Assembly: GCF_007004645.1 (NCBI RefSeq)
Contig: NZ_ML660025.1
Location: forward strand, 1 to 64,000
From: Aliiroseovarius halocynthiae
GTDB lineage: Bacteria > Pseudomonadota > Alphaproteobacteria > Rhodobacterales > Rhodobacteraceae
Direction: 5' to 3'
Length of the DNA: 64,000 bases
Shown: in pieces, positions 10,890-41,067 of the stretch
Layout of the letters: each line of letters opens with the position of its first letter
Position numbering within the stretch: the stretch's first letter is position 1
The notes under the pieces: model-generated
What the model was told of the DNA's origin: nothing
Seen by the model: the letters and a program-made list of their open reading frames with translations, nothing else
The model's database searches: none
Program-made: the position numbers and the translations under genes

Positions 10890-10891
10890 CT

Positions 10892-15209: not shown

Positions 15210-15619
15210 GGAACCAATTCAGATTCAAGAGGTTTTTGCGGGCTTCGAATGGCTGAGATGGCGTAATTTGAATCCTCTGATCTCGGCGCCGCGCATAAAA
15301 AATGAAAGAGCCACCGCTCAATAGGAGCGGTGGCAAGGTTTTGGTGGTTAGAACTGCAATTTAGGCTGGTGAAATTGCAAACTGTTGTTGGTTTTCACAC
15401 GTGACAGTGTTGTGGCGCTCCAATTGACATTACCTATCATCACGAGAAAAAGCTCTTGTATTTGAACCAATCGAGCCATTGAAGCGAAGTAAGTTAGTCA
15501 AAGATTTCAAATCCATTTACCTAAGGTGACTTGTCCACTTGAGATCCCAATAACACTCTTAGTCGCCTGAATTCCGGAAAATCACTAGGTAAATAAGCCC
15601 TATGGAATAGTTGCATAGT
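15210..15619. other. Non-coding gap between dGTPase remnant and the two-gene operon
   Basis: About 410 nt with no supported gene. It contains a strong hairpin (15310-15334, listed separately) and otherwise AT-rich sequence. It lies downstream of the 902-aa gene and of the dGTPase remnant, so it is a convergent 3' region. Confidence 0.45.
15310..15334. terminator. Hairpin, possible bidirectional terminator
   Basis: A perfect 10-bp stem, GCCACCGCTC pairing with GAGCGGTGGC around the loop AATAG. It is preceded by an A-rich stretch (aaaaaatgaaaga) and followed by aaggttttgg. In the minus direction the A-rich flank gives a T-rich tail, which suits termination of the minus-strand operon that ends at 15620. 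The T-run in the plus direction is weak. Confidence 0.5.
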
Positions 15620-18328
15620 CTAAGACTTATCTGCGAAACGACCGAACGGATTAGTGGAAAAATCAGCCCTAAAGCGTTCTGCCATATTCATCAGAAATTC
15701 CAGAGCTTGGCCTTCCGTTCGTACGCCTTGCGCGCCATATAGCTTTAGAGTTTCGTTTAAAAGCAAGCGTCTAGTGGGGAAATCAATTTCTAGTTCCAGC
15801 TCAGATTGAGAAGGGTGTTGAAAATCGCCAGTTAGCTCTTCAAAAGGTAAGTCTTGGGCGGCTTTTGCGAAGCTTGGAGAGGGATCTACGCAATAGATCG
15901 ATGCTGGCAAGCCCTCTATTCGAAACCCATCAGGCCAAGGGAACGCATCAAGAATACTTTGAGCAACAGGTCGCCTTCCCCAACCTGAACCTCTTGACGA
16001 GTGACTCTTCATCCAAGTTTCCAGAATCCCGGAGGCGACGATCGCCGCGGAGAATGTGTCGCCATCAAAGGCGATCCAACCTTTTGGCACGGTGAGCCAC
16101 TCAGGAAGTTTGCGCGGCACGATCGGAAATCTTCCGTCACGAAAGACCCAGCGCGAGATGTCAGCATTAAGATCGTTTTGTAGGACGGGTTCAATTATTA
16201 CATCAGTAGAGCCATGGCTCCGTTGAGGCACAAAGAGCGTTGACAATTCTTCTAGGCCTCGATCATCAGTCCGTGCAACACGCTCTAGTTCTCTTTCCGA
16301 AATCGCAACTAGAGTTGGTACGTTATTAGCGTTTCTAGTACCGGTAGGTAAGACGAACTTTCCAACTCTTCTCATAGGGTGATCCGGATAGCGATCAAGC
16401 CAGCTCCTCCATGCTTCCGCAAGTAGAAATTGTGCATCCCAGTTACTCGCTCTACGAAAAACAGGAGGATGGTCTACAACTGGAAAGCGTTGGGAACATT
16501 GGAAGTCTTCTGGTATTTCGAAGTCCCACAACTGCTCTCTACTGGTATCGCTAAATCTTCTTAAGCTATGCTTATCAGTGTAGCGCATAGCTTGCCGACC
16601 GGTTTCCTCTGCATAACGGATAAGCTCTAGGTTTGGAGTTTCCGCAGTAATAATAAAACGCCGCTTTCTCGGCTCACTAAACAGTAGAAGATCCGCCTTA
16701 CTGTATGGGATGTATTGCTTACTTCTAGGAAAATTTGTTTCGTTTTCAATTGAATTGACTTCGAAGCCTGGAGCAAAATGCTTTGATGCCATTGTCCACG
16801 ACTGCTCGGCTAGAGCCTCAAAGTTGCTTGGTTTCATTGGACGTAAAGCGACATCATAATTCCCACTTTCCCTCGCAAGTTTGGAACTGAGTGAGTGTCT
16901 ATGTTCTAGAAATGCTCTAGCTATGCGCTTCTCGGAAAGGGTCGAAAATGCGACGGCTTCGGATAGATAATCAAATTCAGACTTTACATGCTTGCTTAGC
17001 TTGCTTGGATAGACACAAAGAATACCATCTGTCTGTCGGTTCTTTCGGTTAGACACGCGATCTAAAACTTCGGGCTCCGACAACAATAGTAGGCAAGCTT
17101 TTTCGATGTGATCCGAGAGTCTTCGGGTTAGGGACTTTGTATGATCGCCAACCCAGCCCGGAGATCGCACAAAAGAGGTGTCCAATAAAGTTTGGCCCAA
17201 AGAACCATCAAAGAGAGAAGCTTGGCGATCAAGAGATAGATGGCGGGATGGTCGACTTGGAGGCAAGATTGGGGCCACAATCAATTCCGGAGCATCATTG
17301 TGTTGCAGCATTTCTTCCAAGGCAGCAAGGCTAGGGTTTATCCTTAGTTCCTCACTTCTCTCGCTAACAACAGCTACAACTATGCTATAGCCTTTGAGTT
17401 CTTTGGTGCTAAGGTGATCGACCGCATCATCCCGCCAAACGTCAAACATCTGCCCAGGCCAACTGCGGTCCACTACGAAACCTTGATCTTGGCGTGTTTT
17501 TTGAAAGTGTTGCGCGAGCTTTTCCGCTTCCGGGCCATAGGGAACAATCAACACTGGTTTGGGAACGTAGTGCTTTGGCACTGTAGGTTTGCCAAAGTTT
17601 ACGACCAGGCTAGGTTTATTTCGGCCCAACGGTAACTCGTTCAACAGCTCCGTCACCGCCCGATTAGTTGTCAGTGCTTTAATTACAGCGAGCTCCTCGG
17701 ATGCCATTCCATCCGGGAGGTGCAGTAGATTTATTGCGATTAGGTTGCTCTCGGTATCAAGAGTTAAATGAAGTTGTCTTAGCGCCTCCAATGTTGAGAG
17801 CGATGCGTTTACTACACTTAAGTCTTGGCGCAAATTAACTAGAATCTGACCTCTCAAGTAGGTTTCAACCAGCCACCTCTTTGCGGTTTTGTGTCCTATT
17901 TTCTCGTTTAAAAACTCATAAGCAGTACTGAGAGCTTCCTTTCTTTTACCTCCTGCTTGGCTCGATAAGAGATCCAGAGCAGTCAAAGGAAAGCCAGAAC
18001 CTAGGCCACCTTCACTATCGATCGCTGCCAAAAGTTCATTAGTTGTTCCAAAACAGAACTTTCCTCTTATTAAAAATGCATCCCTCCAAGGTTCTCCGAT
18101 TGAAACTTCCCTACACTCTTCGCTCATTAAATAGTGGATGTCTTGTTCCGGCACCACCTCTTCAAAAAAAGCAATCGAACTCGTTCGATCGCCTTCGATT
18201 TCAGGTGATGCTAAAAAAACTTGGTTGCTTAGTGGGTGTGCTGCATAGAGCGCCGTGCAAATTCCCGTTTCTAGGTCAGCAGGTGCCTCGAAGCCTATTA
18301 GGCGAAAGGTCTCAGAATGTTTCACCAT
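15620..18328 (-). CDS. Unrecognised 902-aa protein of a two-gene operon
   Basis: A large soluble protein that I do not recognise as a whole. The C-terminal part (about residues 720-830) has a module that resembles the target-recognition domains of type IIG/TaqI-like restriction-modification proteins: WIAFDGDTFSAAIVASGILE, then SRGSGWGRRP and a DAFPWPDGF motif. However, no methyltransferase motifs (NPPY, DPACGSG) occur anywhere in it. A central segment (about 270-360) beginning KPVLIVPYGPEAEKLAQHF reads like a Rossmann-type fold. It starts at ATG 18328, only 5 nt after the 279-aa gene, so the two are co-expressed. AT-rich composition, and Gabija and Avs-like systems elsewhere in the island, suggest a defence role by inference only. 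Confidence 0.6.
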   Translation of the reverse strand: MVKHSETFRLIGFEAPADLETGICTALYAAHPLSNQVFLASPEIEGDRTSSIAFFEEVVPEQDIHYLMSEECREVSIGEPWRDAFLIRGKFCFGTTNELLAAIDSEGGLGSGFPLTALDLLSSQAGGKRKEALSTAYEFLNEKIGHKTAKRWLVETYLRGQILVNLRQDLSVVNASLSTLEALRQLHLTLDTESNLIAINLLHLPDGMASEELAVIKALTTNRAVTELLNELPLGRNKPSLVVNFGKPTVPKHYVPKPVLIVPYGPEAEKLAQHFQKTRQDQGFVVDRSWPGQMFDVWRDDAVDHLSTKELKGYSIVVAVVSERSEELRINPSLAALEEMLQHNDAPELIVAPILPPSRPSRHLSLDRQASLFDGSLGQTLLDTSFVRSPGWVGDHTKSLTRRLSDHIEKACLLLLSEPEVLDRVSNRKNRQTDGILCVYPSKLSKHVKSEFDYLSEAVAFSTLSEKRIARAFLEHRHSLSSKLARESGNYDVALRPMKPSNFEALAEQSWTMASKHFAPGFEVNSIENETNFPRSKQYIPYSKADLLLFSEPRKRRFIITAETPNLELIRYAEETGRQAMRYTDKHSLRRFSDTSREQLWDFEIPEDFQCSQRFPVVDHPPVFRRASNWDAQFLLAEAWRSWLDRYPDHPMRRVGKFVLPTGTRNANNVPTLVAISERELERVARTDDRGLEELSTLFVPQRSHGSTDVIIEPVLQNDLNADISRWVFRDGRFPIVPRKLPEWLTVPKGWIAFDGDTFSAAIVASGILETWMKSHSSRGSGWGRRPVAQSILDAFPWPDGFRIEGLPASIYCVDPSPSFAKAAQDLPFEELTGDFQHPSQSELELEIDFPTRRLLLNETLKLYGAQGVRTEGQALEFLMNMAERFRADFSTNPFGRFADKS

Positions 18329-18333
18329 TTTCG

Positions 18334-19173
18334 CTATTCCTGACTAAAGGCACGACGCTGAACATGAGCTTGCACTTTTTGATTCAGCTCAGCACGAAAG
18401 TCCGCCGGGCTTCTAGTACTTTGCCAATCATAAACCTCTACTTCGATTTCAAGTTTTTCCAGCTCGGAGATAAACTCTGCATTCTTACTCCCTTCTGAAC
18501 CCTCTAAGAACTGTTTCGGCAGGATCGCCAGTTCAACCGCTCCCTTCAGATTAAGATGTCTATCCGTAGCGACTTCAATCGCAGACGCTCTATCATCATA
18601 GCTGTTAGGATCATTCACACCTCTGTTCGCTTGGTTTGCGATCATTTCGTAGCTGCGCGTTGCTTGATGAAATTCAGGGATGTTGTCTGTCAGTCCCGGT
18701 TTTAAACGCCCATCGAAATAGTCTTCGACACTCTCAAACGCAAAAGCCATTTGCTTCCGTGCGCCTTCGATTGTTCCTTCCAGAACGTAGTCGTTGATTC
18801 CCAGAAACGGGTCTGCGTTTTCGTAGTGCCCGGCAAAAGCCGCACCGGTATCGAAAGGGTACACTTGAGTGGGATCTACGCGTGATGGATCAACAACAAA
18901 AACACACGGATAGCGCGACAGCTGACGGGAAGAAGCTTCTTCATTTCTTAAACGATACGCTGGTCGGCCGAGGAAGAAGTAGAGAAGATCGCGTTTGAAG
19001 ACTTGGCAGTGTGAAGCCTTCAGCTGACCTGAAAGTATGATGTTTCGCCCAAAGCCCATTGCAGTAACATGAACCAGTGGTAGCTCCGGGCCTGGGGCGA
19101 ATTCAGCAACGTTGTCCTTCAAGTCTGTATGTGGATGGCCGGGGCTATTGACTGGTAAACGATAGTTTGCCAC
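18334..19173 (-). CDS. Unrecognised 279-aa protein, first gene of the two-gene operon
   Basis: No known domain is evident. The N-terminus has GHPHTDLKDNVAEFAPGP and then a conspicuous RDLLYFFLGRPAYRLRNEEA segment, followed by PCVFVVDPSRVDPTQVYPFD. The C-terminal third is charged and includes LNLKGAVELAILPKQFL. The start is taken as GTG 19173, which has an aaggaa stretch about 11 nt upstream; an in-frame TTG at 19221 would add 16 residues without a better site. It precedes the 902-aa gene by 5 nt. The pairing of a mid-sized and a large unknown protein resembles many two-gene defence systems. Confidence 0.6.
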   Translation of the reverse strand: MANYRLPVNSPGHPHTDLKDNVAEFAPGPELPLVHVTAMGFGRNIILSGQLKASHCQVFKRDLLYFFLGRPAYRLRNEEASSRQLSRYPCVFVVDPSRVDPTQVYPFDTGAAFAGHYENADPFLGINDYVLEGTIEGARKQMAFAFESVEDYFDGRLKPGLTDNIPEFHQATRSYEMIANQANRGVNDPNSYDDRASAIEVATDRHLNLKGAVELAILPKQFLEGSEGSKNAEFISELEKLEIEVEVYDWQSTRSPADFRAELNQKVQAHVQRRAFSQE

Positions 19174-19359
19174 GGGAGAGATATTCCTTCGAACTACTTT
19201 AAACAAAAATACTTGCAACAACTATAAGGTGCTGAACCTCAGCCTTTCAACAACCAAAGATCCAACTAACGTTGTGATGTTAGCAGCACTGTTCGTCATG
19301 CACATCCCAGGTGCCCGCGAGAAGCCAAAATCGCCCAAGCAAACAGCTTTGGGCTGAAT

Positions 19360-19545
19360 TGCAGACACCAACGCTATCACGAGAGCCTGCACAACGTCAC
19401 ACCAGCCGATGTCTATTTCGGTCGTGACAAAGCCATTCGGGAACAACGAAAAAGGATCAAACAAAAGACGCTCGAAATGCGACGTTTGCATCACGCCAGC
19501 GCACCGCATAATCAAACCGAACAGATGAGCCAAACTCTCTCTTAG
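19360..19545 (+). pseudogene. IS3-family OrfB transposase, C-terminal fragment
   Basis: The + frame ending at the stop 19543-19545 encodes RYHESLHNVTPADVYFGRDK followed by AIREQRKRIKQKTLEMRR and a short tail, which is the standard C-terminus of IS3-family OrfB. Everything upstream of about 19360 is lost. It belongs to the same type of element as the fragment at 1-280. A long antisense frame over it (19222-19533, minus) is a shadow. Confidence 0.8.
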
Positions 19546-20013
19546 GTTAAGCCCCCATTGGTTCCAAAAACTCTGACGACAGACACAGTTCGTACGTGCG
19601 GCACGCTTGGGGCTACAGTGCGGAGCAATTCGCCATTCCGGTCATTCCTTGACGTCCACCTCGCCTGATCTGAGAACACACTTTCGCTGCCGTGTGTACG
19701 GACCAGCGCGACGCGTATAGGACAAAAACTCGCGACGTCTGCGCCACGGTTCGCGCGCAAGGAATCTAGTCGGGCACTAACGATTGTTTTCGCCGGTGTC
19801 ACAAGTGCATGAGATTTGTCAGACTAGAGGTCATTTAGCTCCTCAACATGGACTGCACCACATCTGGACACGGAATAGTCAAGTGGCGGCGCTCGCGAGT
19901 AAAACTTCCTACAACTTCGAGTTGGTGCTAAGCTCGGACACAGGAAACCAAGGCGCTACAGCGTCAAGCTGGGTTTTCAATTCTTAAATGCAATTTTTGG
20001 CAAGGAGAGAATT
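19546..20013. other. Non-coding gap after the IS fragment
   Basis: About 470 nt with no convincing gene. Two short overlapping frames (19542-19802 minus and 19784-19987 plus) lack ribosome sites and coding character. The right end must hold the promoter of the 493-aa gene that starts at 20014. Confidence 0.4.
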
Positions 20014-21495
20014 ATGAGACCACAAGATGCACACATTTTCTTGGAAAATTTTTGCAAAGACGATGCGGGAATCGGAATATCAATCGACATCATTGAGCGT
20101 ATACTTCGAGAGCAAGTCAGTAGCTCCAGTACGGCCTTTCAAAATATGCCTTCGAATGAGACGTTCAAAGGTTATGATGTCGCCTTCGACGCGAACGTAG
20201 ACCTTGCCTCAGTAAAGCTAAAATTTGACCAGGTTAATGGAAGGGCGGCGTTAAAGATAAGTAACTTTCAGATCGCGTTTACGATGAAAGTGGATAAACA
20301 CGCCGTCGCAAACGTTCAAATTTCTTATTCCGAAGTCCTCGGATTATTCGACTTTTTAGATCGAAGAATCACCATAACACCTCTTTCTGACAAGCACACA
20401 TCAGGCGCTCCCGATTATATTTGGGAGGCCGACTCAAACCTGAAGGATATGCTCGAAGCACCACCGTATTCCTTTGAAGAAAGTGACTGGGACGATCTAA
20501 AATTATTTATTAGAGCAGCGATCTTAAATGCTGCATCTCCCATGGCCCGCTCTGTTGTCGAGGCTCTGGAACTGCCTGACTTCCTTGAAATTTTTGTTGG
20601 CATTATCTTTGGAAATGACTCTAGATTTGAGGTCGAGTCAGGTCTTCTAATGTTCTCCGCTTCCTCGACCCTAAATTTTGACAACTGCCCATCATACAAG
20701 CCTTCGGGCGGTGGTGGCGCGCGAGCTCGGTCTGCATTTGATGGCAATGAAATTACAAGTTTGTCCACGGATCAAGCTGAGAGATTGGGTGAGGATCCTG
20801 GCGCATTAAGAGTAGACGGATCGATCGGCGATGAACACCCAGACTACAACTGGCCAGTTCCTCTCCCAGATGCGCCGATGGAGCTTGGACATGTTTTCTT
20901 GTTCACGCCGGTAAACTTACTTCGAGTGAACTTCGATGGCGCACTTAAACCTGCCGTGAATACCAATGATAGACGACGACATGGTCCATTCTTCACGCAT
21001 TACTCCTTAACGGCTGCTCTGGATGGGCCTTTGACGCTCGATCTTGTGCGCCTGTGGCCGATTGTATTTCAACTGCGGACCTCGTTGTTCACTGCGGGCC
21101 AAGCTGGAGCAGGAATAAAGATTGGTAGTATTTGGTACGAAGCCATTGGCGCTCGGTTTACGGGTCGAGTAAACCTCGGTGTCGAATTCTCTATTTCGTA
21201 CGATCCACGTAGAAAAGACATAGTGTTTGTTTCCCGCGTCAACGAAGCAAATGCCTATGACTTTTTCTTTGCGAACAGCCTACCGTGGCCTCTGTCCTCT
21301 GTCGCGAACTGGATCCTCGAACGAGTAGTCGAGAAGTTGTTGCCTACCTTGGCCCGCAGAGCGGTTTCGGTTTCTAGAATTCCGATTGCTGAACTGGGGT
21401 TGCTGGCCGAGGTTGCTGATCTTCTTCCAGGACTTGCTGGTCACTCTGACACGAGCACAGGGAACGCAACATTTGGTGTTGCGCTTGATCTCTAG
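20014..21495 (+). CDS. Hypothetical protein, 493 aa, TULIP-like features uncertain
   Basis: An orphan gene with a good start (ATG 20014 behind caaggagagaatt). The N-terminal 170 residues alternate strands and amphipathic pieces (DVAFDANVDLASVKLKFDQV, ALKISNFQIAFTMKVDKH), a pattern that resembles lipid-binding TULIP/BPI-like folds, and the second half repeats such a pattern (RVNFDGALKP, ARFTGRVNLGVEFSISYDP). A flexible glycine-rich linker (PSGGGGARARS) lies near residues 230-240. There is no signal peptide or membrane helix. The function is unknown. Composition is AT-rich, unlike the GC-richer YcaO operon that follows 310 nt later on the same strand. Confidence 0.6.
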   Translation: MRPQDAHIFLENFCKDDAGIGISIDIIERILREQVSSSSTAFQNMPSNETFKGYDVAFDANVDLASVKLKFDQVNGRAALKISNFQIAFTMKVDKHAVANVQISYSEVLGLFDFLDRRITITPLSDKHTSGAPDYIWEADSNLKDMLEAPPYSFEESDWDDLKLFIRAAILNAASPMARSVVEALELPDFLEIFVGIIFGNDSRFEVESGLLMFSASSTLNFDNCPSYKPSGGGGARARSAFDGNEITSLSTDQAERLGEDPGALRVDGSIGDEHPDYNWPVPLPDAPMELGHVFLFTPVNLLRVNFDGALKPAVNTNDRRRHGPFFTHYSLTAALDGPLTLDLVRLWPIVFQLRTSLFTAGQAGAGIKIGSIWYEAIGARFTGRVNLGVEFSISYDPRRKDIVFVSRVNEANAYDFFFANSLPWPLSSVANWILERVVEKLLPTLARRAVSVSRIPIAELGLLAEVADLLPGLAGHSDTSTGNATFGVALDL

Positions 21496-21805
21496 AAGTT
21501 GAAGCCACGGTAACTCGCAATTACGAAGCGAGTGCTCTGGGGGGACGAATTGAAATTCGTCTTCCCGTATCTTTTGTCCTCCGGATCGTTTCCGGGCGAT
21601 TGCCAAGGCCAATCGGGTGAGGTCTCAGACCTCTTTTGTTCTAGGTTTCTTGATCATGATCGCCACTTCAATCTGGGTCGAAACACCACCCAAGGTTGCT
21701 GAAATCAAGAAAGCTTGGTACCGTTTGTATTTATTATTGGCTCTTTAGGCTTAACCGGTCATCTCGAGCGACCGAACGCCATTTTTGAACGTTTGGAGTG
21801 TACTC
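21496..21805. other. Gap before the YcaO operon
   Basis: About 310 nt with no gene. It presumably holds the promoter of the YcaO operon. A short dyad flanks 21540-21560 (gacgaattgaaattcgtc), and GC content rises sharply after about 21880. I see no convincing -35/-10 pair. Confidence 0.4.
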
Positions 21806-23128
21806 TTGTTGATTGACAGCGCAGACTGCAGAACAACCTCCCAATATTGGCAGCTAAAGCCGACACCAAAATATTCGACCAAAGCGGTCGCACGATGCGT
21901 GCCACCTTCCGCAACCGTACGGCGCGCAAAGCGACTGATCGAGCGTGTCGGTGTAACCCAGGTCGCCGAGGTTACGGGCCTCGATTCCGTTGGCATTCCT
22001 AACTTTATGACGGTGCGACCCCGCGACCTGGGGCCTGGCATTTCCTATTATAACGGCAAGGGAACCACGCGGCAGGATGCACTGGCCGGGGCCCTGATGG
22101 AAGCGGTGGAGCGGCAGGCAGGGGAGCACTGCGACTATGCGGTCACCTACGCCTCAGAGGCGGAACTGGCCGGGACAACGCCGCTCACTAAGCTGGCCGA
22201 AATCGTCGTGCCCAATGCCTGTGCTTTCGACGATCAAACGCCTGTCGAGTGGGTGCACGGCTACGACCTGATCGGCCAACGCGCCACGGCGGTACCTTTG
22301 AACGCGGTGGTCTGCCCCTACACGCCGACAGATGTCCCTGCGTTGTTTTATGCTAGTACCAACGGACTGGCCTCGGGCAACACGCTGACGGAAGCGCTGT
22401 GCCACGCGCTGTGCGAAGTGATTGAACGCGATGCCCTGGCAATCTCGCTTGCGCGGTCACAGGTGACACCAGCCATTGGGGGTCTGCTGGAAAGCATAGG
22501 TATCAGCAGCTCGCCATCGGCACATCAAAACGCCGATCACGCCCAAATCCGGCTGGAGGGACTGCCGCGACGGGCGGCTTTGCTGGTCGGTCGACTGAAA
22601 CGCGCGGGCTTGAACATCTATGTGCGCAACCTGACCTCGACCGCCGGGTTGGCAACAATTGATTGCACGATCGTGGAACCGACGGCCTCCGGTATTCCCA
22701 ATGCCCATGGCGGCTGTGGCACCCACCCCGACGCTAGGATTGCCCTCAACCGGGCCATCACCGAAGCCGCACAAAGCCGCATCGCATGTATTCAAGGCGG
22801 GCGCGAGGACCTGCCCGAGATCATCAAACCGCGCGCGCCATACGACGCAGACGAACTATATGGTGGCACGGAATTCATCGACTTTGACGACGTACCTTCG
22901 GTGCAGAACGCGTCCATCGATGACGATATCCGACTGATCCTGGACAGAATGCCTGATTATGGGCTGGATCAAGCCGTGGCCTTTGACCTGACCCGCCCAG
23001 AGGTCGGCATGCCGGTTGTGCGCGTGGTTGTGCCCAAGGCCGAGGCCTGGTCCGTCTTTCACCTTCACACCGGTCGAGGCGTCTTTGGCGAACGCGTCTC
23101 GCAAGTTCTGCAAGGAGCGATGCAATGA
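21806..23128 (+). CDS. YcaO-domain ATP-dependent cyclodehydratase/thioamidation protein
   Basis: A 440-aa YcaO-family protein. YcaO enzymes use ATP to phosphorylate backbone amides of a peptide or protein, giving azolines, thioamides or amidines. The signature ATP-binding stretch ASTNGLASGN is near residue 181 and is followed by the EALCHALCEVIERDALAISL helix; GAGISYYNGKG-like and GCGTHPD blocks are also present. The partner tfuA gene favours thioamidation over azoline formation. I set the start at TTG 21806, 7 nt after a ggag site; TTG 21785 and 21809 are alternatives. Its stop overlaps the radical SAM gene (ATGA). Confidence 0.85.
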   Translation: MLIDSADCRTTSQYWQLKPTPKYSTKAVARCVPPSATVRRAKRLIERVGVTQVAEVTGLDSVGIPNFMTVRPRDLGPGISYYNGKGTTRQDALAGALMEAVERQAGEHCDYAVTYASEAELAGTTPLTKLAEIVVPNACAFDDQTPVEWVHGYDLIGQRATAVPLNAVVCPYTPTDVPALFYASTNGLASGNTLTEALCHALCEVIERDALAISLARSQVTPAIGGLLESIGISSSPSAHQNADHAQIRLEGLPRRAALLVGRLKRAGLNIYVRNLTSTAGLATIDCTIVEPTASGIPNAHGGCGTHPDARIALNRAITEAAQSRIACIQGGREDLPEIIKPRAPYDADELYGGTEFIDFDDVPSVQNASIDDDIRLILDRMPDYGLDQAVAFDLTRPEVGMPVVRVVVPKAEAWSVFHLHTGRGVFGERVSQVLQGAMQ

Positions 23129-24714
23129 CCAAAGTCACGCTCTTTAGCGCCACCTTGGGCGAAGACGGCAAGATCGAGCCACCGCTAGGTCCACTCTACA
23201 TCGCAGCCGCCCTTGAACAGATCGGGCATGAGGTCGATTTTCGCGACTACCAACTGCACGAGGGGGCAGACTGCTATTCCGCCGACACGTTCGTTCAGGC
23301 GTTGGAGGGGCACCAGGAGTACGTTCTGATCTCATGCTTTGTAGACATGCTGCCGGTGGTCCTGGCCGCCTGCAAAAAGCTCAAGGTCGCCGATCCCGGT
23401 TGCAAGATCATCCTGGGCGGTCCTGGTGTTTCAGGAAATGCCCGCGAATTGATGGAGGCCTTTGCCTGGGTTGACGGCATCGTGCGCGGCGAGGGCGAAA
23501 AGACCATTCAGGCGTTCTTTGGCATCGACGAACTGGACACCCTGGTCGGCGACCCTGTCGCGGGACTGGTATGGCGCGATGGTGACACTCTCGTCGACGG
23601 GCCAGAACGCCCCCGGATTACGGATGCAGACAACTTACCTTGGCCTGCATATCACCTGCTGGACTGGTCACGCTACAGCTCCGCTCGCGTGATCACGACC
23701 CGCGGTTGCCCGTACAAATGTTCGTTCTGCGATGTGGCCCCGCTTTGGGGCCGACGCGCCGTATATCGTGATATCAAACGCGCTATCGACGAGATCGTCA
23801 TGCTGCGGGATCGGTTCGGCATCGACAAAATCGCCATCGTCGACGACACGTTTGTGCTGAACCGCGACCGGGTGCGCGCGTTCTGCCAGAACATCCTAGA
23901 TCGCGGTGTCAAGGTCGAATGGGGCTGCTTTGGTCGTATCAACCTGATGAGCGAAGATCTGGTGTCGTTGATGGCACAGGCAGGCTGCCGCGCTATTTTC
24001 TATGGCATCGATTCCGGTGCGCAAAAGGTACTGAACCGGACGTTCAAGGAACTCAAGGCCGAAACGATCCTGCCCGCGCTTGAGATGTCGCAGCGCTATT
24101 TTGATCGAGTCGAGGCCTCGTTTATCTGGGGCTACCCTTTTGAAACGCTTGAGGATTTTGAAGAAACACTGGCACTTGCCAGTGCCGCCTCGCAGTTTGC
24201 GCCCAAGGTAAACGTGCAGTTGCACATGCTCAGCCCACTGCCCAGTTCGCCGATCTACCTCGACTTTGAGGGTACTTTGCAGCGCCCCGCGCCGGAAGAC
24301 AGCAACTGGTTGCTTTTGCCCGCCGTTCTGCTGGACGAACGTGCGGCGCAAGTTGCCGAGGTCATCGACATGGCACCGCATCTCTTCCCCGGCTTTTTCA
24401 ACTTGCCCACTGAGAGCCGGGACGAGAAACGCGCCTATCTGGAAAAATCGATGCGCGCGCTCGACTTCACGATCGGCTCCAGTCTTTTTGATAAAGAAGT
24501 GCTGACGCTGATGGAAGCCTGCAACCGCCCCACCGAAGAACGGCTGTTGCAGACCGCTGAAGACGATGCAGACCGAATCGGCATCGGGCTAGCCCTGGGC
24601 CTGTTCCGGCGCACCCGGCGGCGCAATCGCAAGGCAGCCTCGACCGTTGACAGCGCCGCGCGCGGCCCGTCGATGGTGCGCCAGCGCAACGATTTACAAA
24701 AGGCAACGTCATGA
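23125..24714 (+). CDS. B12-binding-type radical SAM protein
   Basis: A 529-aa enzyme with an N-terminal cobalamin-binding-like Rossmann domain (about residues 15-130: PLGPLYIAAALEQIGHEVDF, ILGGPGVSG, VDGIVRGEGEKT) and a radical SAM core with the Fe-S motif CPYKCSFC (Cys195, Cys199, Cys202). This architecture is that of the BchE-like and RiPP C-methyltransferase radical SAM enzymes, so methylation or another radical step on a peptide is likely. A basic, Ser/Ala-rich tail (residues about 500-529) is unusual. It overlaps YcaO upstream and tfuA downstream by four bases each. Confidence 0.85.
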   Translation: MTKVTLFSATLGEDGKIEPPLGPLYIAAALEQIGHEVDFRDYQLHEGADCYSADTFVQALEGHQEYVLISCFVDMLPVVLAACKKLKVADPGCKIILGGPGVSGNARELMEAFAWVDGIVRGEGEKTIQAFFGIDELDTLVGDPVAGLVWRDGDTLVDGPERPRITDADNLPWPAYHLLDWSRYSSARVITTRGCPYKCSFCDVAPLWGRRAVYRDIKRAIDEIVMLRDRFGIDKIAIVDDTFVLNRDRVRAFCQNILDRGVKVEWGCFGRINLMSEDLVSLMAQAGCRAIFYGIDSGAQKVLNRTFKELKAETILPALEMSQRYFDRVEASFIWGYPFETLEDFEETLALASAASQFAPKVNVQLHMLSPLPSSPIYLDFEGTLQRPAPEDSNWLLLPAVLLDERAAQVAEVIDMAPHLFPGFFNLPTESRDEKRAYLEKSMRALDFTIGSSLFDKEVLTLMEACNRPTEERLLQTAEDDADRIGIGLALGLFRRTRRRNRKAASTVDSAARGPSMVRQRNDLQKATS

Positions 24715-25370
24715 AGACGGCGGTTTTTCTTGGCCCATCTCTGCACCAGCGAGATGCCCGCCAATTGCTTGAAGCGAGCTATTTCCCCCCCATCAAGCGC
24801 GATGATCTGGCGGGCATGACCGACTGGGACGTCATCGTGATTATCGACGGTCAGTTTGGCCAGTCGCTGGCTGTGACGCCGAAAGAGATCCTCAATCTTC
24901 TGGATCAGGGCGTGCGCGTTGTTGGTGCCTCAAGCATGGGGGCGTTGCGCGCCGCCGAACTTGATAGTTTCGGGATGGAAGGTATCGGCTGGGTCTTTAA
25001 CCGGTTCAAGCAAACCTGGATCCGGCAAGAGGATGAGGTCGCACTGTCCTATGCCCCCCACGATCTGAGCGCCTTAACCGTGCCCCTGGTGGACATTGCA
25101 CATTGGATGGAAACCCTGCGCCATGCCGATCTGGTGACCAAAGCCGAGGCTGCGGCGATCTTTCGTGCGCTCAAGCGGGTCTTTTTCGCCGAACGCACGC
25201 CATCAAAGGTCTACGACGCAGTTGCAAAGGCCGTGGGTGATGACAGGGCAGCAGCCATCCGTTCCGAGGCCGACATTCCCGACATCAAGGGCGCTGATGC
25301 CCGTGCAGCCCTTAACCATGTGGCCTGCATGAAGTCCACTGAACACAACGATATTGAAATGACCGTTTAA
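24711..25370 (+). CDS. TfuA-like protein, YcaO partner
   Basis: A 219-aa TfuA-family protein. TfuA proteins accompany YcaO enzymes in trifolitoxin and thioamide RiPP clusters and in methanogen McrA thioamidation, where they are thought to deliver sulfur. The conserved core is clear: FLGPSLHQRDARQLL at the N-terminus, DGQFGQSLAVTPKEIL, and VVGASSMGALRAAELDSFGMEGIG. ATG 24711 overlaps the radical SAM stop (ATGA). The precursor-like gene begins 12 nt after its stop. Confidence 0.9.
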   Translation: MKTAVFLGPSLHQRDARQLLEASYFPPIKRDDLAGMTDWDVIVIIDGQFGQSLAVTPKEILNLLDQGVRVVGASSMGALRAAELDSFGMEGIGWVFNRFKQTWIRQEDEVALSYAPHDLSALTVPLVDIAHWMETLRHADLVTKAEAAAIFRALKRVFFAERTPSKVYDAVAKAVGDDRAAAIRSEADIPDIKGADARAALNHVACMKSTEHNDIEMTV

Positions 25371-25382
25371 GAGGAGAGAGTT

Positions 25383-25631
25383 ATGGTTAAGGAAACTGGC
25401 GACAACCCGCAGAAGGGTCTGGTCGAACTGCTTGGCCGGGCGCTGACCGACAAGGACTTGCGCGCGGAATTGCAGAACAACCCTGACGAATTGGCCAAAC
25501 GATTTGACCTTACGGAAAAGGACGTTGAGGCTATCAGCAAGCTCGACTCCGAAACGCTCGAAGAGGCGGCGGAAAAACTCGCAGGCCGCGCCGAATGGAC
25601 GATTAAGGTCGTCATCTCGAAGAGCTTTTGA
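25383..25631 (+). CDS. Putative RiPP precursor, Franean1_4349/Os_ECF-like leader
   Basis: An 82-aa protein behind a strong site (aagaggagagagtt). Residues about 13-55 (LVELLGRALTDKDLRAELQN then NPDELAKRFDLTEKDVEAIS) match the leader style of Franean1_4349-type RiPP precursors: a short helical segment, LTDxDLRAEL, NPDE and DLTEKDVEA. The C-terminus (about 69-82) is short and hydrophobic, reading AEWTIKVVISKSF, and is the likely core. It has Thr and Ser but no Cys, and Trp72 stands out. It follows tfuA in one operon. It could instead be a small regulatory protein, but the family-like leader and the context favour a precursor. Confidence 0.65.
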   Translation: MVKETGDNPQKGLVELLGRALTDKDLRAELQNNPDELAKRFDLTEKDVEAISKLDSETLEEAAEKLAGRAEWTIKVVISKSF

Positions 25632-26094
25632 GCTAGGCCAGTCGGCGGTTGTTTTCGGGTGTAAGTTCTGTCGCATACGCCTACAAAAGTACTTGCATGT
25701 ATTCGGCAATCCCAATGTCGAGGCCGTCAGCATAACGGGACCAACTAAGGTCAACACAAAGACACATGTGTGCCTAAGCTACCTTCAATCTGTATTGACC
25801 GCTGCGCTGATCACGAATGACCCGTTCTCCAGCTGCGTTGCAGCATCAGACACCGAGCATTCGCCGTGATTCTTTCGCTGCGAGCGCACGCAGCACAAAA
25901 CCGACAGGTCCGATGTGGGCTCCGCCCCGTCATTCGCCGCATTTTTCCCAAACGGGGGCTTTTGATGTCTAGATGTTTTTCTGCGCCCGTCTCTATTGGA
26001 AGTAGCGAAACCAACACTAGCATGATGACGCCAACGCGCTTTGCTGACCAAAAACACAGTGCATCACCCTTTTTTGCGGCAGCGGACCGTCATT
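25632..26094. other. Gap after the RiPP-like operon
   Basis: About 460 nt with no supported gene. A minus frame at 25785-26057 ends with the phrase SVSDAATQLENGSFVISAAV, which I think recurs in intergenic regions of this group, but it has no ribosome site. Composition becomes AT-rich again. Confidence 0.4.
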
Positions 26095-26481
26095 TTAGCC
26101 ACCAATGATCCGCCCTACGCCATCTACGTCGGCGCTATCTGCGCCTGTCCGCCCGCATCCGCAGAATACCAGACCTCTTTTCTCGCCTTTCGGCACATCA
26201 ACACAGAGTGTGTGCCAACTAACCACGACCTCCGAACAATGAGGGCAAGTCGCTTTGAATGGAGACGAAGGAAGTGGATGACGGCGGTGTCGCGATGCAA
26301 GGAGTGCCTTTGCAAACTCATACTCTTCCTGATCCATTGCGGCCCAATCATCATCAGTCGCCGCGACCTCGTACAGCAGAATGACATTATGAGAGTCGAG
26401 GGTACGATCAGGAGTCGTACGAGCAGATATTTTTTTGAGCACGGGCCATTCTGAAAGGGTGTATACTTTGTCTGATTGCAT
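26095..26481 (-). CDS. Hypothetical protein with C-terminal zinc-ribbon-like motif
   Basis: A 128-aa protein starting at ATG 26481 behind taggagcc on the minus strand. The frame is open further upstream, but that part has no coding character. The C-terminal region contains CPHCSEVVVSWHTLC and FCGCGRTGA, which together could bind zinc. The N-terminal half is unfamiliar. It lies about 100 nt downstream of kptA on the same strand and may be the last gene of that transcript. Function unknown. Confidence 0.6.
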   Translation of the reverse strand: MQSDKVYTLSEWPVLKKISARTTPDRTLDSHNVILLYEVAATDDDWAAMDQEEYEFAKALLASRHRRHPLPSSPFKATCPHCSEVVVSWHTLCVDVPKGEKRGLVFCGCGRTGADSADVDGVGRIIGG

Positions 26482-26581
26482 TTTGTATTGGCTCCTAACT
26501 TGAATTGATAAGGGCTTTGGCACGCTAGCGCTTGGCCTTTTTGCCTGCGAATAAACGCAAACCAATCGGCCACGTGATCTG

Positions 26582-27127
26582 TTACGGCTCCGCGAACCTA
26601 CCGAAACCCAAGTAGGTTGCGGGCACCTTGTCAGTGAGCCAAACACCGTTGTCGGCGCGGAAAAACTCAAACCCGTCCTTGAACATGCGCTGTGTTTCAA
26701 CTCGTAAAACAACCGGCTTTCCGTGTCGTTGCCCGACGCGTTCAGCTGTATCGGGGTCAAGCGAAAGATGAACTTGCTTACGGCGTCCGGGGTTCAACCC
26801 CTCTGAAAATATCGCATCCAAATTTGCGCTGGCCGTGCCGTGATACAGCTCATCCGGCGGGCGTTGAGGTTCCAGCCCCAGATCCACATCAATTGAGTGT
26901 CCTTGGGCTGCCCTAATGCGCAGACCATCATCAGACAGGGTGAAGCGTTTCTTATCGTTGCTCTCGACAAGCTGAGTGAGTTCGTCGCGGCTTAGCTTGA
27001 GATTGGCTTTCTTCAGCTTCCGCAGCAAATCATCAACACGAACCCACCCGTGTTTATCAAGCTGAAGACCGATCTCTTCAGGTTTGTGCCGAAGCACCAG
27101 ACTCAGGAATTTGCTTTCTCTACTCAT
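26582..27127 (-). CDS. kptA: RNA 2'-phosphotransferase (Tpt1/KptA)
   Basis: A 181-aa Tpt1/KptA enzyme. It transfers an RNA 2'-phosphate to NAD+, giving ADP-ribose 1'',2''-cyclic phosphate. Family blocks are intact: ESKFLSLVLRHKPEEIGLQL, HGWVRVDDLL, YHGTASANLDAIFSEGL, HLSLD and FFRADNGVWLTDKVPATYL. The start is ATG 27127, giving the usual MSRESKFLSL; the frame is open 13 codons upstream. The gene begins only 10 nt after tniQ and so is probably read with the transposition operon. The bacterial role of KptA is unclear because most bacteria make no 2'-phosphate tRNA splice junctions. Confidence 0.9.
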   Translation of the reverse strand: MSRESKFLSLVLRHKPEEIGLQLDKHGWVRVDDLLRKLKKANLKLSRDELTQLVESNDKKRFTLSDDGLRIRAAQGHSIDVDLGLEPQRPPDELYHGTASANLDAIFSEGLNPGRRKQVHLSLDPDTAERVGQRHGKPVVLRVETQRMFKDGFEFFRADNGVWLTDKVPATYLGFGRFAEP

Positions 27128-27137
27128 CTCAAAACCT

Positions 27138-29003
27138 TCACAACTCCGGCCAGGCAATTTCATCATGCGAGAGCGGGAGGCGATTGGCCAGTTCTTCCAC
27201 TCCGGAGGTCACCTCACTCCGCCTGAATATGCGTCCACCACACTCTTCCGGCATTCGGATAAACGGAACCCGCTCCTTTATGAGCTGGTCGCTGACTTTC
27301 CGGGTGCTGCCCCCCAGAAATTCCGCATAGTGTTTTCCGGGAATGAAGCGCTCCAGAAACCGGTCAACAGAGCTATACGGCACCACCTGCACCGACTTCC
27401 GGGACACCGGATGACGCGCCCGAACCAGTTTCAGATGGCGCTTGTCCACGAGATGGCGGAGGGTGGCTGCGTTGACACCTAGGAATCCCGCCAGCGTCGA
27501 TCGCAAATATCCGTTCGGTCTGATCAGGCGCAATGCTTCAGCAACCTCCGCCGGGTCCAGGAGCACCGACAGATAGCCATCTTGTTCGGCATCCCTGACC
27601 ACAGTCTTCAGATCGCCATTCTGGATCAGTCGCACCACATCGACTGCACCAGCAACAGCTTTGCGGCAGACGGACTGAATACCGACTAGCCCATCCGCTT
27701 TTGCCACCTTTGTGCGCGGCACGATACTGGCGAGAAACGCATCTAGTTGCCCTTCATCGTAATATGGTCGTCCTACAGGGGAACCCGCGATGGGTCTGAT
27801 GATCCCACCTGCAACAAGAGCGCCAAACTGTGCCCTCGGCGTATTGATCTTTTTCTGAGCCGCAACCTGACAGATCGCCCCTGCGAAGTTTTTGACCAAT
27901 GGCGCCAATGCCTGTGCATCGAGCAGAACACCTTTCGCAGAGTTATCTGCCTGAGGGTCCGAACTTAGAAACCCGTTTGCTCCAAGCAGTTCAATTGTCT
28001 GACGACGCCCCAGCCCAAGATCCCGCCGCAAGGTTTCAACACTATGAACGCGACGGGTTGTACAGGTTTTCCCAAGCACCCGATCGCCTTCGCCGATGGG
28101 ATAGGTCTCGGTGAAGAATTTCCTGACCGTATCCCGCAAGGGCTCGTATTGCTCCGCATGGGATTGTTCCAGCCAGTTGAACAGGCAGCCGTAGTTTCTG
28201 CGCGAAAGTGATATGGGAGAACCGGCCTCACGATGCAGTCGCCTCAGCAGGCGAAACAGCCCTTCCTCGCCTTCGGACAGGAGCTCAAAACCCCTCGCAC
28301 CTGCACGACGCTTCTCATTATCGGATAAGTGCTTCAGCTTTGCATCGACGCCAAACAGATCGACAATTCCGAAGATCTCGGCACCAAGCGCAACCGCACC
28401 GAACCCGATATTGTCGAGCCATGTGCCCTGTTTTTCACCCGCTAACCGGCGGGTTAGATATTCTTCCAGACCTGATGGGACCTGCCATGCACCAAGCTCT
28501 CTCAACTGATCTGCCCCCAGATTGAGATCGCGGATACGCCCGGCAAAGTCGTGGGGACCACGGCTGTGTGAATAGCTGACGTCGTCATACAACCTGACCT
28601 GGTGGTGGCTGCATGTCCGGATCGAAGGCACATGCCAGGCGCATCGCTGTGCGGCACCACCGGCAGTGTCTGTCATAATGTCATCCGCGACACATTCCGG
28701 ACAGAACCGCAGACGCCTGCGCGTGATCCAGCGTTTCTCGATAAGTTGCCCGGCCAGCCGGTACTGCCCGGTCGACACTTTGCGAACAACACCACGCATC
28801 AGTTGAGCAAGTTCCACTCTGCCGAGCTGGGCGAGGATCGAAAGGGCCCGTTCATCGCCGTCAGCGATGGCCTGAAGCGTAAAGCCCTGATCGGTGCAAA
28901 ACTCCGAGGCAAAGGAAAGACCATTCGCCCAGGCAAGCCGGGATGCGAATGATGCCGGGGTTTCCCCCGGCATCAAGGGAACAAGGATCGGCAACAACGG
29001 CAT
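27138..29003 (-). CDS. tniQ: TniQ/TnsD-family target-selection protein
   Basis: A 621-aa TniQ-domain protein. The N-terminus (PLMPGETPASFASRLAWANG) and the zinc-binding array (FCPECVADD followed by a downstream H-x-C-x2-HH, near residues 100-135) are typical. The long C-terminal part (about 330-620) with HTH-like segments makes it closer in size to TnsD than to short TniQ proteins, so it probably recognises a specific DNA target site and recruits the TnsC ATPase. Its ATG overlaps the last base of the tnsC stop. kptA follows 10 nt after its stop. Confidence 0.88.
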   Translation of the reverse strand: MPLLPILVPLMPGETPASFASRLAWANGLSFASEFCTDQGFTLQAIADGDERALSILAQLGRVELAQLMRGVVRKVSTGQYRLAGQLIEKRWITRRRLRFCPECVADDIMTDTAGGAAQRCAWHVPSIRTCSHHQVRLYDDVSYSHSRGPHDFAGRIRDLNLGADQLRELGAWQVPSGLEEYLTRRLAGEKQGTWLDNIGFGAVALGAEIFGIVDLFGVDAKLKHLSDNEKRRAGARGFELLSEGEEGLFRLLRRLHREAGSPISLSRRNYGCLFNWLEQSHAEQYEPLRDTVRKFFTETYPIGEGDRVLGKTCTTRRVHSVETLRRDLGLGRRQTIELLGANGFLSSDPQADNSAKGVLLDAQALAPLVKNFAGAICQVAAQKKINTPRAQFGALVAGGIIRPIAGSPVGRPYYDEGQLDAFLASIVPRTKVAKADGLVGIQSVCRKAVAGAVDVVRLIQNGDLKTVVRDAEQDGYLSVLLDPAEVAEALRLIRPNGYLRSTLAGFLGVNAATLRHLVDKRHLKLVRARHPVSRKSVQVVPYSSVDRFLERFIPGKHYAEFLGGSTRKVSDQLIKERVPFIRMPEECGGRIFRRSEVTSGVEELANRLPLSHDEIAWPEL

Positions 29004-29980
29004 TATGCAGCCCCCCTCTTGATTGCTGGCGCTATCTCCAGCTCCGCTCCGCTGAGAAGCTGACCAGTCTTAATGGAGCGAAAATTCTCCGCAATGAATG
29101 GATTCAATGCATCAACACAGCGCTTCTGTTTCCGATAGGCACCTGCGAAGTGACTTTGTTCAAGGGTTTGGGTCTCATCGCGCAATGCCAATTTGATAGC
29201 CGATATGATTAGCCCAATTTTCGACCCGAACTCGTAGCGGGCCGCGTGTAGCAACCGTCGTACGAATGTCGAGGTCTCAAGCGTTTTGCCGCGCGACAGT
29301 TTTGCCGCATCGAGATAGGCATCCAGTACGCCCATCACCTCATGCCCATGGGCGGCATAGCTCATGGGCGCAAGATGCACGGGTTCAAACCGCCGGCTGA
29401 GCTGTTCATCCCGGTTGATCAGATCCAGTAGTTCGCAGGTGCCACTGAGGATCAGGCTGACCGGCCACTCAGCGTATTCCAGGCACGATTTCCAGACCAG
29501 CATCACCTGATCAAATTCAGACTTCGATTTGGTCCGAAGGATATGCTGCGCTTCGTCAAAGTGCAGAAAAAGCGTCTTATGGGAGCGCGCCTGACGCATC
29601 ACCTGCCGCCAGATCGAATGTCCCGTCCGGGCACCTTTGCTCTCATAGCCATAAGCCTCAAGGGTATCGAGACCGACACCCTTGATTGTGGCCTCTGACG
29701 CCAGACGCACAGTCAACGCCTGATTATATGGTTTTCCATAAGCCAAATGCGGATGCTTCTGCAGAAGATGTTCAATGCCAAAACTCTTGCCGGCACCGGC
29801 ATTGCCAATGACAACAATGCCGCGTTGCGCTGTCGTGCGGCCAGCAGCCGTGTGCGCATTGCGCCGATAGAGAATATCATCAACCTGATCCCGGAGCTCC
29901 AGGTAAGTGTCATGTGCGATAAAGCGGTGTTCAAGGTCAGCCACGATGTGGCTGACCTCCTCACGGGAAATATGTGTCAT
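29003..29980 (-). CDS. tniB: TnsC/TniB-like AAA ATPase of the transposon
   Basis: A 325-aa AAA+ regulator. Walker A GNAGAGKSFGIEHLL is near residues 57-71, Walker B LFLHFDEAQHILRTK near 138-152, sensor region LILSGTCELLDL after that and a C-terminal helical part. In Tn7-like and Tn5053-like elements this ATPase bridges the target selector and the transposase. The size is TniB-like rather than that of the 555-aa Tn7 TnsC. It overlaps tnsB by four bases (ATGA) and tniQ by one. Confidence 0.9.
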   Translation of the reverse strand: MTHISREEVSHIVADLEHRFIAHDTYLELRDQVDDILYRRNAHTAAGRTTAQRGIVVIGNAGAGKSFGIEHLLQKHPHLAYGKPYNQALTVRLASEATIKGVGLDTLEAYGYESKGARTGHSIWRQVMRQARSHKTLFLHFDEAQHILRTKSKSEFDQVMLVWKSCLEYAEWPVSLILSGTCELLDLINRDEQLSRRFEPVHLAPMSYAAHGHEVMGVLDAYLDAAKLSRGKTLETSTFVRRLLHAARYEFGSKIGLIISAIKLALRDETQTLEQSHFAGAYRKQKRCVDALNPFIAENFRSIKTGQLLSGAELEIAPAIKRGAA

Positions 29981-32804: not shown

Positions 32805-32834
32805 GTGTTCTGATGTTGTGCGAGATCATTCCCT

Positions 32835-32847
32835 GACCAATAGGGTC
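32835..32847. promoter_or_regulatory. Dyad GACC-N5-GGTC, copy 1, upstream of tnsA
   Basis: The sequence GACCAATAGGGTC is an inverted repeat (GACC, five bases, GGTC) about 30 nt upstream of the tnsA start. An almost identical copy lies 65 bp further at 32900, about six helical turns away, so a dimeric regulator such as the nearby HTH protein could bind both from the same face. Binding is inferred, not shown. Confidence 0.5.
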
Positions 32848-32899
32848 AAGGTGAACCACACACATTCCTCTTGTCGAATGGTGGAAGGCGGCCGTGCAC

Positions 32900-32912
32900 G
32901 ACCAATCGGGTC
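32900..32912. promoter_or_regulatory. Dyad GACC-N5-GGTC, copy 2, inside a hairpin region
   Basis: GACCAATCGGGTC repeats copy 1 with one difference. It partly overlaps a perfect hairpin (CGGGTC at 32907-32912, loop AAAA, GACCCG at 32917-32922) that is itself enclosed by GGCGGC at 32887-32892 pairing with GCCGCC at 32923-32928. The site could be an operator, a structured leader of the tnsA transcript, or part of the transposon end. Confidence 0.5.
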
Positions 32913-32990
32913 AAAAGACCCGGCCGCCAGACTTGACTTTTGAGGGGATTCGAGAGACCTTCAGAGTGTCAGCTACCAAATGACGTGAAG

Positions 32991-33021: not shown

Positions 33022-33033
33022 ATTTCTAGATCA

Positions 33034-41060: not shown

Positions 41061-41067
41061 CTAAAAT

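What the first reader, a model, noticed from the sequence alone, without database searches (positions are those of the whole stretch)
21806..25631. Compact YcaO / B12-radical-SAM / TfuA operon with a Franean1_4349-like precursor: probable new RiPP
Seen: four genes on one strand, the first three joined by ATGA overlaps and the fourth 12 nt later behind a strong ribosome site. The products are a YcaO protein (ASTNGLASGN), a cobalamin-type radical SAM enzyme (CPYKCSFC), a TfuA protein (GASSMGALRAAELDSFGMEG) and an 82-aa protein with a precursor-like leader. Known: YcaO-TfuA pairs install thioamides, and B12-type radical SAM enzymes in RiPP clusters C-methylate peptides. Inference: the short hydrophobic C-terminus with Trp, Thr and Ser but no Cys is thioamidated and/or methylated. 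The operon is GC-richer than its island neighbours and has no visible transporter or protease, which is unusual for a secreted product; an intracellular role is possible. I cannot match it to a named RiPP class.
Basis: partly seen in the sequence, partly recalled or inferred. Interest (0 to 1): 0.8.

Follow-up and report, generated by a model that had tools for sequence, protein, structure and literature searches.

The report
Transposon-borne thioamide/methyl peptide operon
A four-gene operon, carried inside a bacterial transposon, appears to make a small peptide whose tail end is probably given rare sulfur and methyl changes; the same set of four genes occurs in a few very distantly related bacteria.

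Summary
Four genes (YcaO 21806-23128, cobalamin radical-SAM 23125-24714, TfuA 24711-25370, 82-aa peptide 25383-25631) form an operon. The peptide passes the curated cut-off of the Os1348 family of NHLP-type leader peptides and is modelled as a helical leader with a low-confidence 14-residue tail.

The same four genes occur in four metagenome-assembled genomes of Acidobacteria and Planctomycetes (enzymes 45-58% identical to the window's). Against one (L003) the last 10 residues are identical, with 6 silent codon changes, while the rest is 39% identical: this favours the tail as the modified core. Other pairs show this weakly or not, and one precursor has a proline-rich tail.

Most likely YcaO-TfuA thioamidates and the radical-SAM enzyme C-methylates the tail. 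Gene families, operon and conservation are shown; chemistry, cleavage and function are inferred. TfuA-YcaO with B12 radical-SAM is in print with other leaders, so this is a new variant of a known kind.

The parts
21806..23128 (+). YcaO protein, probable ATP-dependent backbone thioamidase (likely start TTG 21806; frame open from TTG 21785)
   Evidence: Pfam PF02624 231 bits; best NCBIfam model is the McrA-glycine thioamidation YcaO, 252 bits, below its 365 cut-off; best solved relative MJ1094, 6pe3, E 1.6e-35
23125..24714 (+). Cobalamin-binding radical-SAM enzyme, probable C-methyltransferase
   Evidence: PF04055 and PF02310; best NCBIfam model ApyD 190 bits, cut-off 750; model pLDDT 88, closest solved fold MgmA 9ccb E 1.1e-21; cysteines C195, C199, C202 invariant in 18 aligned sequences
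24711..25370 (+). TfuA protein, probable thioamidation partner of YcaO
   Evidence: PF07812 129 bits; NCBIfam McrA-glycine thioamidation TfuA 188 bits, cut-off 235; solved relative 6xp8 E 4.9e-29
25383..25631 (+). 82-aa precursor: helical Os1348/NHLP-type leader (about residues 9-67) and tail (69-82)
   Evidence: NF038399 53 bits, cut-off 40; AlphaFold model pLDDT 65, helices 9-67, tail pLDDT below 50; best fold match Os1348 6lk7, E only 0.09
25599..25628 (+). Presumed core, last 10 residues TIKVVISKSF
   Evidence: 10 of 10 residues identical to L003 with 6 silent codon changes, against 27 of 69 in the rest; other pairs 1 to 5 of 10
15411..42719 (.). Tn7-like transposon that carries the operon; ends TGTGGCG..., 5-bp target duplication AGTGT
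   Evidence: 18 of 24 end match with identical 5-bp flanks; empty site in sister genome G015/L204
27138..29003 (-). TniQ/TnsD-type target-selection protein of the transposon
   Evidence: PF06527 75 bits
29003..29980 (-). TnsC/TniB-type AAA ATPase of the transposon
   Evidence: PF05621 56 bits
29977..32130 (-). TnsB-type transposase
   Evidence: Mu-transpos_C 22.2 bits (cut-off 21.7), rve 24.2 (below 32.6); plasmid relatives annotated Mu transposase C-terminal domain protein
32127..32804 (-). TnsA-like endonuclease
   Evidence: PF08722 E 6e-4, 20.7 bits, below cut-off 26.5
39309..42159 (-). SIR2-HerA anti-phage pair, co-cargo of the transposon
   Evidence: PADLOC HerA 784 bits, SIR2 420 bits

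Best explanation
A compact RiPP-type operon. A small precursor with a folded helical Os1348/NHLP-type leader presents a flexible, hydrophobic C-terminal tail (TIKVVISKSF). YcaO with TfuA activates one or more backbone amides of the tail with ATP and replaces oxygen by sulfur (thioamide), and the B12 radical-SAM enzyme adds one or more methyl groups to unactivated carbons, perhaps on Val/Ile of the tail. The operon travels as cargo of a Tn7-like transposon beside a SIR2-HerA anti-phage pair, so the product more likely serves competition or defence than housekeeping. Shown: genes, operon, leader family, conservation over three phyla, constraint on the tail between two phyla, transposon. Inferred: thioamide, methylation, order, site, leader removal, function.
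For: Domain matches. All four genes in the window and in each of the 4 genomes with a radical-SAM relative above 50% identity: L002, L003, L004, L005 (L005 split over two contigs). A profile of the five precursors finds, in 160 loci of radical-SAM relatives, only the four loci it was built from. No other gene is shared between the window's transposon and the relatives' loci in an all-against-all comparison of frames of 70 aa or more at E 1e-5; apart from frames that lie across the four genes, the one further shared pair joins two Planctomycete loci at 34%, one of them a kinase-domain protein (kinase match). Tail 10/10 identical with 6/10 silent codon changes against 27/69 elsewhere between window and L003. 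Helical leader, low-confidence tail. Solved relatives: 6pe3, 6xp8 and MgmA 9ccb, the glutamine methylase of methyl-coenzyme M reductase; that 6pe3 serves the same enzyme is recalled. No Ser, Thr or Cys column is shared by the five tails, which speaks against azolines. Transposon ends, duplication, empty site.
Against: No chemistry was seen. None of the three enzymes passes an equivalog cut-off. Outside the window-L003 pair the tail is only mildly better conserved than leader residues 11-71 (5/10 against 19-26 of 61 in four pairs), or not better (L004-L002 3/10 against 21/61), and L005 shares 1/10 with each other tail against 17-26 of 61. L005's genome has an in-frame TAG in its YcaO, so that copy may be decayed or misassembled. 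L002's precursor is below the family cut-off (35.1 against 40). No protease, exporter or immunity gene is shared. Four of the five members are metagenome assemblies.
Confidence: 0.7

Rival explanations
1. The product is not a released peptide but a retained, modified small protein: the tail stays on the helical domain and acts inside the cell, as thioglycine and methyl groups do in methyl-coenzyme M reductase.
For: Identical tail in two phyla; no protease or exporter gene shared by the loci; no GG site shared by the precursors; the radical-SAM model is nearest to MgmA among solved structures; Lys-rich N-terminal extensions in L003 and L004, weakly like histone H1 in L003.
Against: L002 has an S8 protease and an MFS protein directly upstream; host proteases can cleave leaders; only two genomes share the exact tail.
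Confidence: 0.2
2. YcaO makes azolines from Ser/Thr instead of thioamides.
For: Window tail has T73, S79, S81; the generic YcaO kinase-domain model passes its cut-off, 203 against 76.
Against: No Ser/Thr/Cys column is shared by all tails; SagD-type cyclodehydratase model below its cut-off, 129 against 219; a TfuA partner is present and the operon holds no further partner gene.
Confidence: 0.07
3. The operon is a decayed or passive hitch-hiker of the transposon without a working product.
For: Single copy, absent from the 20 other genomes of the genus that were searched.
Against: Four intact frames with host-like GC3 (0.66-0.71 against 0.64-0.68 in five chromosomal genes) and silent-only changes in the tail against L003.
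Confidence: 0.05

Closest known systems
Thioamidated RiPP clusters with YcaO-TfuA (thioviridamide, thiovarsolin; survey PMC8120280)
   Same: YcaO and TfuA with a short precursor; the survey reports TfuA clusters of Bradyrhizobium and Desulforegula with B12-binding radical-SAM proteins
   Different: There CCRG-2-like (Bradyrhizobium) and Nif11-like (Desulforegula) precursors; here an Os1348/NHLP-type one. Words beginning os1348, nhlp or planctomycet do not occur in that paper's text; its supplements were not searchable
Methyl-coenzyme M reductase modification enzymes (YcaO-TfuA thioglycine, MgmA methylglutamine)
   Same: All three enzyme kinds; closest solved structures (the role of 6pe3 and 6xp8 partly recalled)
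   Different: Equivalog cut-offs not reached; the presumed substrate is a dedicated small peptide in the same operon
Aminopyruvatide ApyD (PMC10635010, passages)
   Same: Best curated model for the radical-SAM enzyme, over residues 17-444; ApyD C-methylates a Tyr in a RiPP
   Different: 190 bits against cut-off 750; the operon has no MNIO or P450 gene and the precursor ends in Phe, not Asp; ApyD is called RRE-containing in the paper
Os1348-family and borosin SonA precursors
   Same: Leader family; weak fold matches to Os1348 6lk7 (E 0.09) and SonA (E 1.8)
   Different: No N-methyltransferase gene in the operon; different modifying enzymes

Membership tests
Thioamidated RiPP (YcaO-TfuA) | ycaO and tfuA in one operon | tested here: met
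   the radical-SAM gene lies between them in the window; directly adjacent in L002
Thioamidated RiPP (YcaO-TfuA) | dedicated precursor peptide conserved with the enzymes | tested here: met
   5 of 5 genomes
Thioamidated RiPP (YcaO-TfuA) | thioamide in the product | not testable with these tools
   needs mass spectrometry
Os1348 family NHLP clan (NF038399) | score above curated cut-off 40 | tested here: met
   53.0 bits; relatives L003 43.7, L004 50.7, L005 45.3 pass, L002 35.1 does not
Franean1_4349 peptide family (PF14407) | score above gathering cut-off 48 | tested here: not met
   25.8 bits; L003 31.6 and L004 39.0 also below
Aminopyruvatide | ApyD equivalog score and C-terminal Asp | tested here: not met
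   190 against 750; precursor ends in Phe
Aminopyruvatide | MNIO gene in the cluster | tested here: not met
   the operon's three enzymes are YcaO, radical-SAM and TfuA; the rest of the genome was not searched for MNIO
MCR modification enzymes | equivalog scores of methan_mark_1, ThioGly_TfuA_rel, B12_SAM_MJ_0865 | tested here: not met
   252/365, 188/235, 95/360
Azoline-forming TOMM | SagD-type cyclodehydratase score | tested here: not met
   129 against 219
B12 radical-SAM C-methyltransferase | B12-binding plus radical-SAM domains with CxxxCxxC | tested here: met
B12 radical-SAM C-methyltransferase | methyl transfer to a carbon of the tail | not testable with these tools
   needs assay; some members of the fold do not methylate
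Tn7-like transposon | TnsB, TnsC and TniQ genes, TGT/ACA ends, 5-bp duplication, empty site | tested here: met
   the TnsA match is sub-threshold

The most novel reading that the evidence does not exclude
A mobile genetic element carries a dedicated small protein whose fixed C-terminal beta-like tail is both backbone-thioamidated and C-methylated by a set of enzymes akin to those that dress the active site of methyl-coenzyme M reductase; the tail is not released but works in the cell, possibly as part of the transposon's anti-phage cargo.
Probability: 0.1. Interest if true: 0.85.

Novelty: new variant of a known kind. Interest (0 to 1): 0.55.

Why it matters
It would be a minimal four-gene system for joining backbone thioamides and radical C-methylation on one peptide, small enough to reconstitute. 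It also places an apparently complete RiPP-type operon inside a Tn7-like transposon next to a phage-defence pair, a precise case of peptide biosynthesis moving as transposon cargo.

Tried and rejected
Franean1_4349 label: sub-threshold, replaced by the Os1348 family. More members, searched with YcaO: 61 relatives including the own genome (1 hit, own; E 1e-30); 289 of the class (own plus one 38% YcaO with TfuA; E 1e-50); 294 of L003's phylum (1, L003's own genome); 297 of L002's phylum (L002's own genome twice, plus two 35-39% YcaO with TfuA); 162, 45 and 154 genomes around L004, L005 and L003 (1 each, the centre itself); 398 of the own phylum (1, own). The samples overlap. In 19-kb stretches around the three distant YcaO-TfuA pairs no radical-SAM or precursor match appeared. 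The precursor in the four relatives' genomes also gave four further matches at E 0.3-0.9, taken as chance. Radical-SAM in plasmids: 36 records, the 20 listed at most 32% identical. Viral contigs: 87 relatives, 80 kept, at most 29% over long matches, none with a YcaO, TfuA or precursor match. L010 has a 24% YcaO near a 34% radical-SAM and no TfuA match: not counted. The 493-aa neighbour 20014-21495 has no Pfam, PADLOC or plasmid match; a 13-pair terminator-like stem follows it (7 such sites against 4.8 in shuffles): not part of the operon. None of ten transposon proteins of the window matched 20 fetched loci, 7 of them around the operon's relatives. I first took the gene at the insertion point for parC; Pfam shows a ribonucleotide reductase with a TSCPD domain, class II being my inference. 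A window stretch inside the element, 19366-19586, also matches the sister locus; several plasmid records annotate it as part of an IS3-family transposase, so it does not upset the element's limits. Papers: PMC8120280 abstract, outline, passages and sections 12, 13; PMC10635010, PMC12455567, PMC5589413, PMC12715929 passages only; all others only the listing. Searches for a prior description; most subscription papers and all supplements were out of reach.
Full report
Observation. ATGA overlaps join YcaO to radical-SAM (23125-23128) and radical-SAM to TfuA (24711-24714); the 82-aa frame follows 12 nt after TfuA behind GAGGAG. A 13-pair terminator-like stem at 21538-21567 separates the operon from the 493-aa gene upstream (7 such sites found against a mean of 4.8 in shuffles, so weak by itself).

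Families. YcaO 231 bits, TfuA 129, Radical_SAM 69 with B12-binding 61 (Pfam). In NCBIfam the best models are the McrA-glycine thioamidation YcaO (252 bits, cut-off 365), the McrA-glycine thioamidation TfuA (188, 235) and, for the radical-SAM enzyme, ApyD (190, 750), BchE (141), PhpK (109), HpnJ (99) and the MCR glutamine C-methyltransferase (95). None passes an equivalog cut-off. Against solved structures by sequence: YcaO to MJ1094 6pe3 (1.6e-35), TfuA to 6xp8 (4.9e-29), radical-SAM to 9ccb (1.2e-18). A model of the radical-SAM enzyme (pLDDT 88, 18 sequences) matches MgmA 9ccb best (E 1.1e-21), then CysS, AprD4, OxsB, TsrM and TokK. So the nearest solved relatives of the three enzymes lie among, or close to, MCR-modifying enzymes; for 6pe3 and 6xp8 that is partly recalled, the calls give only 'MJ1094' and 'TfuA domain-containing protein'. 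The PDB is a thin sample, and by profile ApyD is closer than MgmA.

Precursor. It passes NF038399 (Os1348 family NHLP clan), 53.0 bits against 40. The AlphaFold model (5 sequences, pLDDT 65, pTM 0.46) gives helices from 9 to 67 and a tail 69-82 below pLDDT 50. No fold match reaches E 0.001; the best is Os1348 itself (6lk7, E 0.09, probability 1.00), then SonA of the borosins (E 1.8). These are weak but agree with the sequence family. For another NHLP leader, protein-protein contacts of a folded leader with a YcaO enzyme are in print (PMC12455567, passages); that YcaO has an RRE domain, and whether ours has one was not tested.

Relatives. A scan of one genome per species (84,980 species) with the radical-SAM protein gave 332 relatives, 80 kept; 4 of the 80 reach 53-58% (L002, L004 Acidobacteria; L003, L005 Planctomycetes by record title), the rest are at 37% or less. 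The scan uses short peptide patterns and can miss members. Each of these four genomes has YcaO, radical-SAM, TfuA and an Os1348-type precursor. L002 has two YcaO genes (62% alike); the precursor gene lies between the radical-SAM gene and the second one. L005 is split: YcaO and the N-terminal part of the radical-SAM gene lie at the end of contig C300, the rest starts contig C238; its YcaO frame holds one TAG. Beyond the four genes no frame of 70 aa or more is shared between the window's element and the relatives' loci at E 1e-5, frames lying across the four genes left aside. A profile of the five precursors finds, in 160 loci of radical-SAM relatives, only the four it was built from, and in 260 genomes of the window's class the window plus one chance-like piece of a 618-aa frame. 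The window genome has a single copy. None of 20 further genomes of its genus, 16 of its family and 24 of its class holds the YcaO, which suggests acquisition.

Tail. Window against L003: the part before residue 73 is 27 of 69 identical, the last ten residues 10 of 10, with 6 of those 10 codons changed silently (Fisher p 2.4e-4, the boundary chosen after seeing the data). Leader residues 11-71 against tail for the other pairs: window-L004 19/61 and 5/10; window-L002 21/61 and 5/10; L003-L004 26/61 and 5/10; L003-L002 23/61 and 5/10; L004-L002 21/61 and 3/10; L005 with each other 17-26/61 and 1/10. Four tails share hydrophobic residues at positions 74, 76 and 78 and a final Phe; L005 instead runs into a proline-rich stretch. 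So a constant core is clear for one pair, a constant pattern for four, and neither for the fifth. No Ser, Thr or Cys column is common to the tails, nor a GG site.

Transposon. TnsA-like, TnsB, TnsC/TniB and TniQ genes lie between 32804 and 27138 on the minus strand. Of all pairs of 286 TGT sites (5-27 kb) and 164 ACA sites (32-45 kb), the best with an identical 5-bp flank matches 18 of 24 (8 of the first 9); the next best matches 12. It spans 15411-42719 with AGTGT on both sides. In sister genome G015 the stretches like window 14772-15398 (97%) and 42743-43704 (86%) lie 34 bases apart: the empty site, though the few bases at the joint are diverged. Of ten sister loci fetched (one of them, L203, cut short by its contig), only this one shows the left flank; in the others only the reductase side aligns. 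An IS3-like piece inside the element (19366-19586) also occurs near the site in G015. The right end lies 19 bases from the end of a ribonucleotide reductase gene. Cargo includes KptA, SIR2-HerA, a 1503-aa protein with a marginal AAA match and three proteins without a Pfam or PADLOC match. Gabija genes at 8967-12628 lie outside the element.

Mechanism. Inferred: the leader docks on the enzymes; YcaO activates a tail amide with ATP and a sulfide donor, helped by TfuA, gives the thioamide (as proposed for MCR, PMC5589413 passages); the B12 radical-SAM enzyme methylates carbon, as ApyD does (PMC10635010 passages). Which residues, and whether the tail is cut off, is open. Co-location of RiPP clusters with defence genes is in print for lanthipeptides (PMC12715929 passages), so the neighbourhood is suggestive, not special proof.

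Novelty. TfuA clusters with B12-binding radical-SAM proteins are in print for Bradyrhizobium and Desulforegula, with CCRG-2-like and Nif11-like precursors (PMC8120280, sections 12 and 13). I found no description of this gene set with an Os1348 precursor, nor of such a set as Tn7-like cargo. The host's class was inferred as Alphaproteobacteria: a genome called same class (G087) has a contig of 579,288 bases, the length of the Azospirillum cavernae contig of L080.

Check of this report. On re-reading I corrected the statement on the YcaO start, added for the shared-neighbour claim and for the IS3 piece, and dropped a habitat claim.

Noticed in passing
window 15411-42719: 27.3-kb Tn7-like transposon inserted 19 bases past a ribonucleotide reductase gene, carrying SIR2-HerA, KptA, a 1503-aa protein and the operon.
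   Followed up: yes
window 8967-12628: Gabija pair (GajA 705 bits, GajB 579 bits) near tRNA-Phe 8621-8695, outside the transposon.
   Followed up: partly
window 20014-21495, 15620-18328, 18334-19221: Three AT-richer cargo genes (493, 902, 295 aa) without Pfam or PADLOC match.
   Followed up: partly
window 19366-19586: IS3-family transposase fragment inside the transposon, shared with many plasmids and with sister genome G015.
   Followed up: yes
L003 8257-8598 and L004 8251-8610: Precursors with Lys/Ala-rich N-terminal extensions absent from the window copy; weakly histone-H1-like in L003.
   Followed up: no
L002 1795-8906: Two YcaO genes flank the radical-SAM and precursor genes; subtilase and MFS genes upstream.
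   Followed up: no
L098 8429-9957: Different YcaO-TfuA pair with an 87-aa upstream frame ending CVIAVIGPSC, no NCBIfam match: possible other thioamide precursor.
   Followed up: no
L212 (G328 C300): In-frame TAG in a conserved stretch of the YcaO of L005's genome: decay or assembly error.
   Followed up: no
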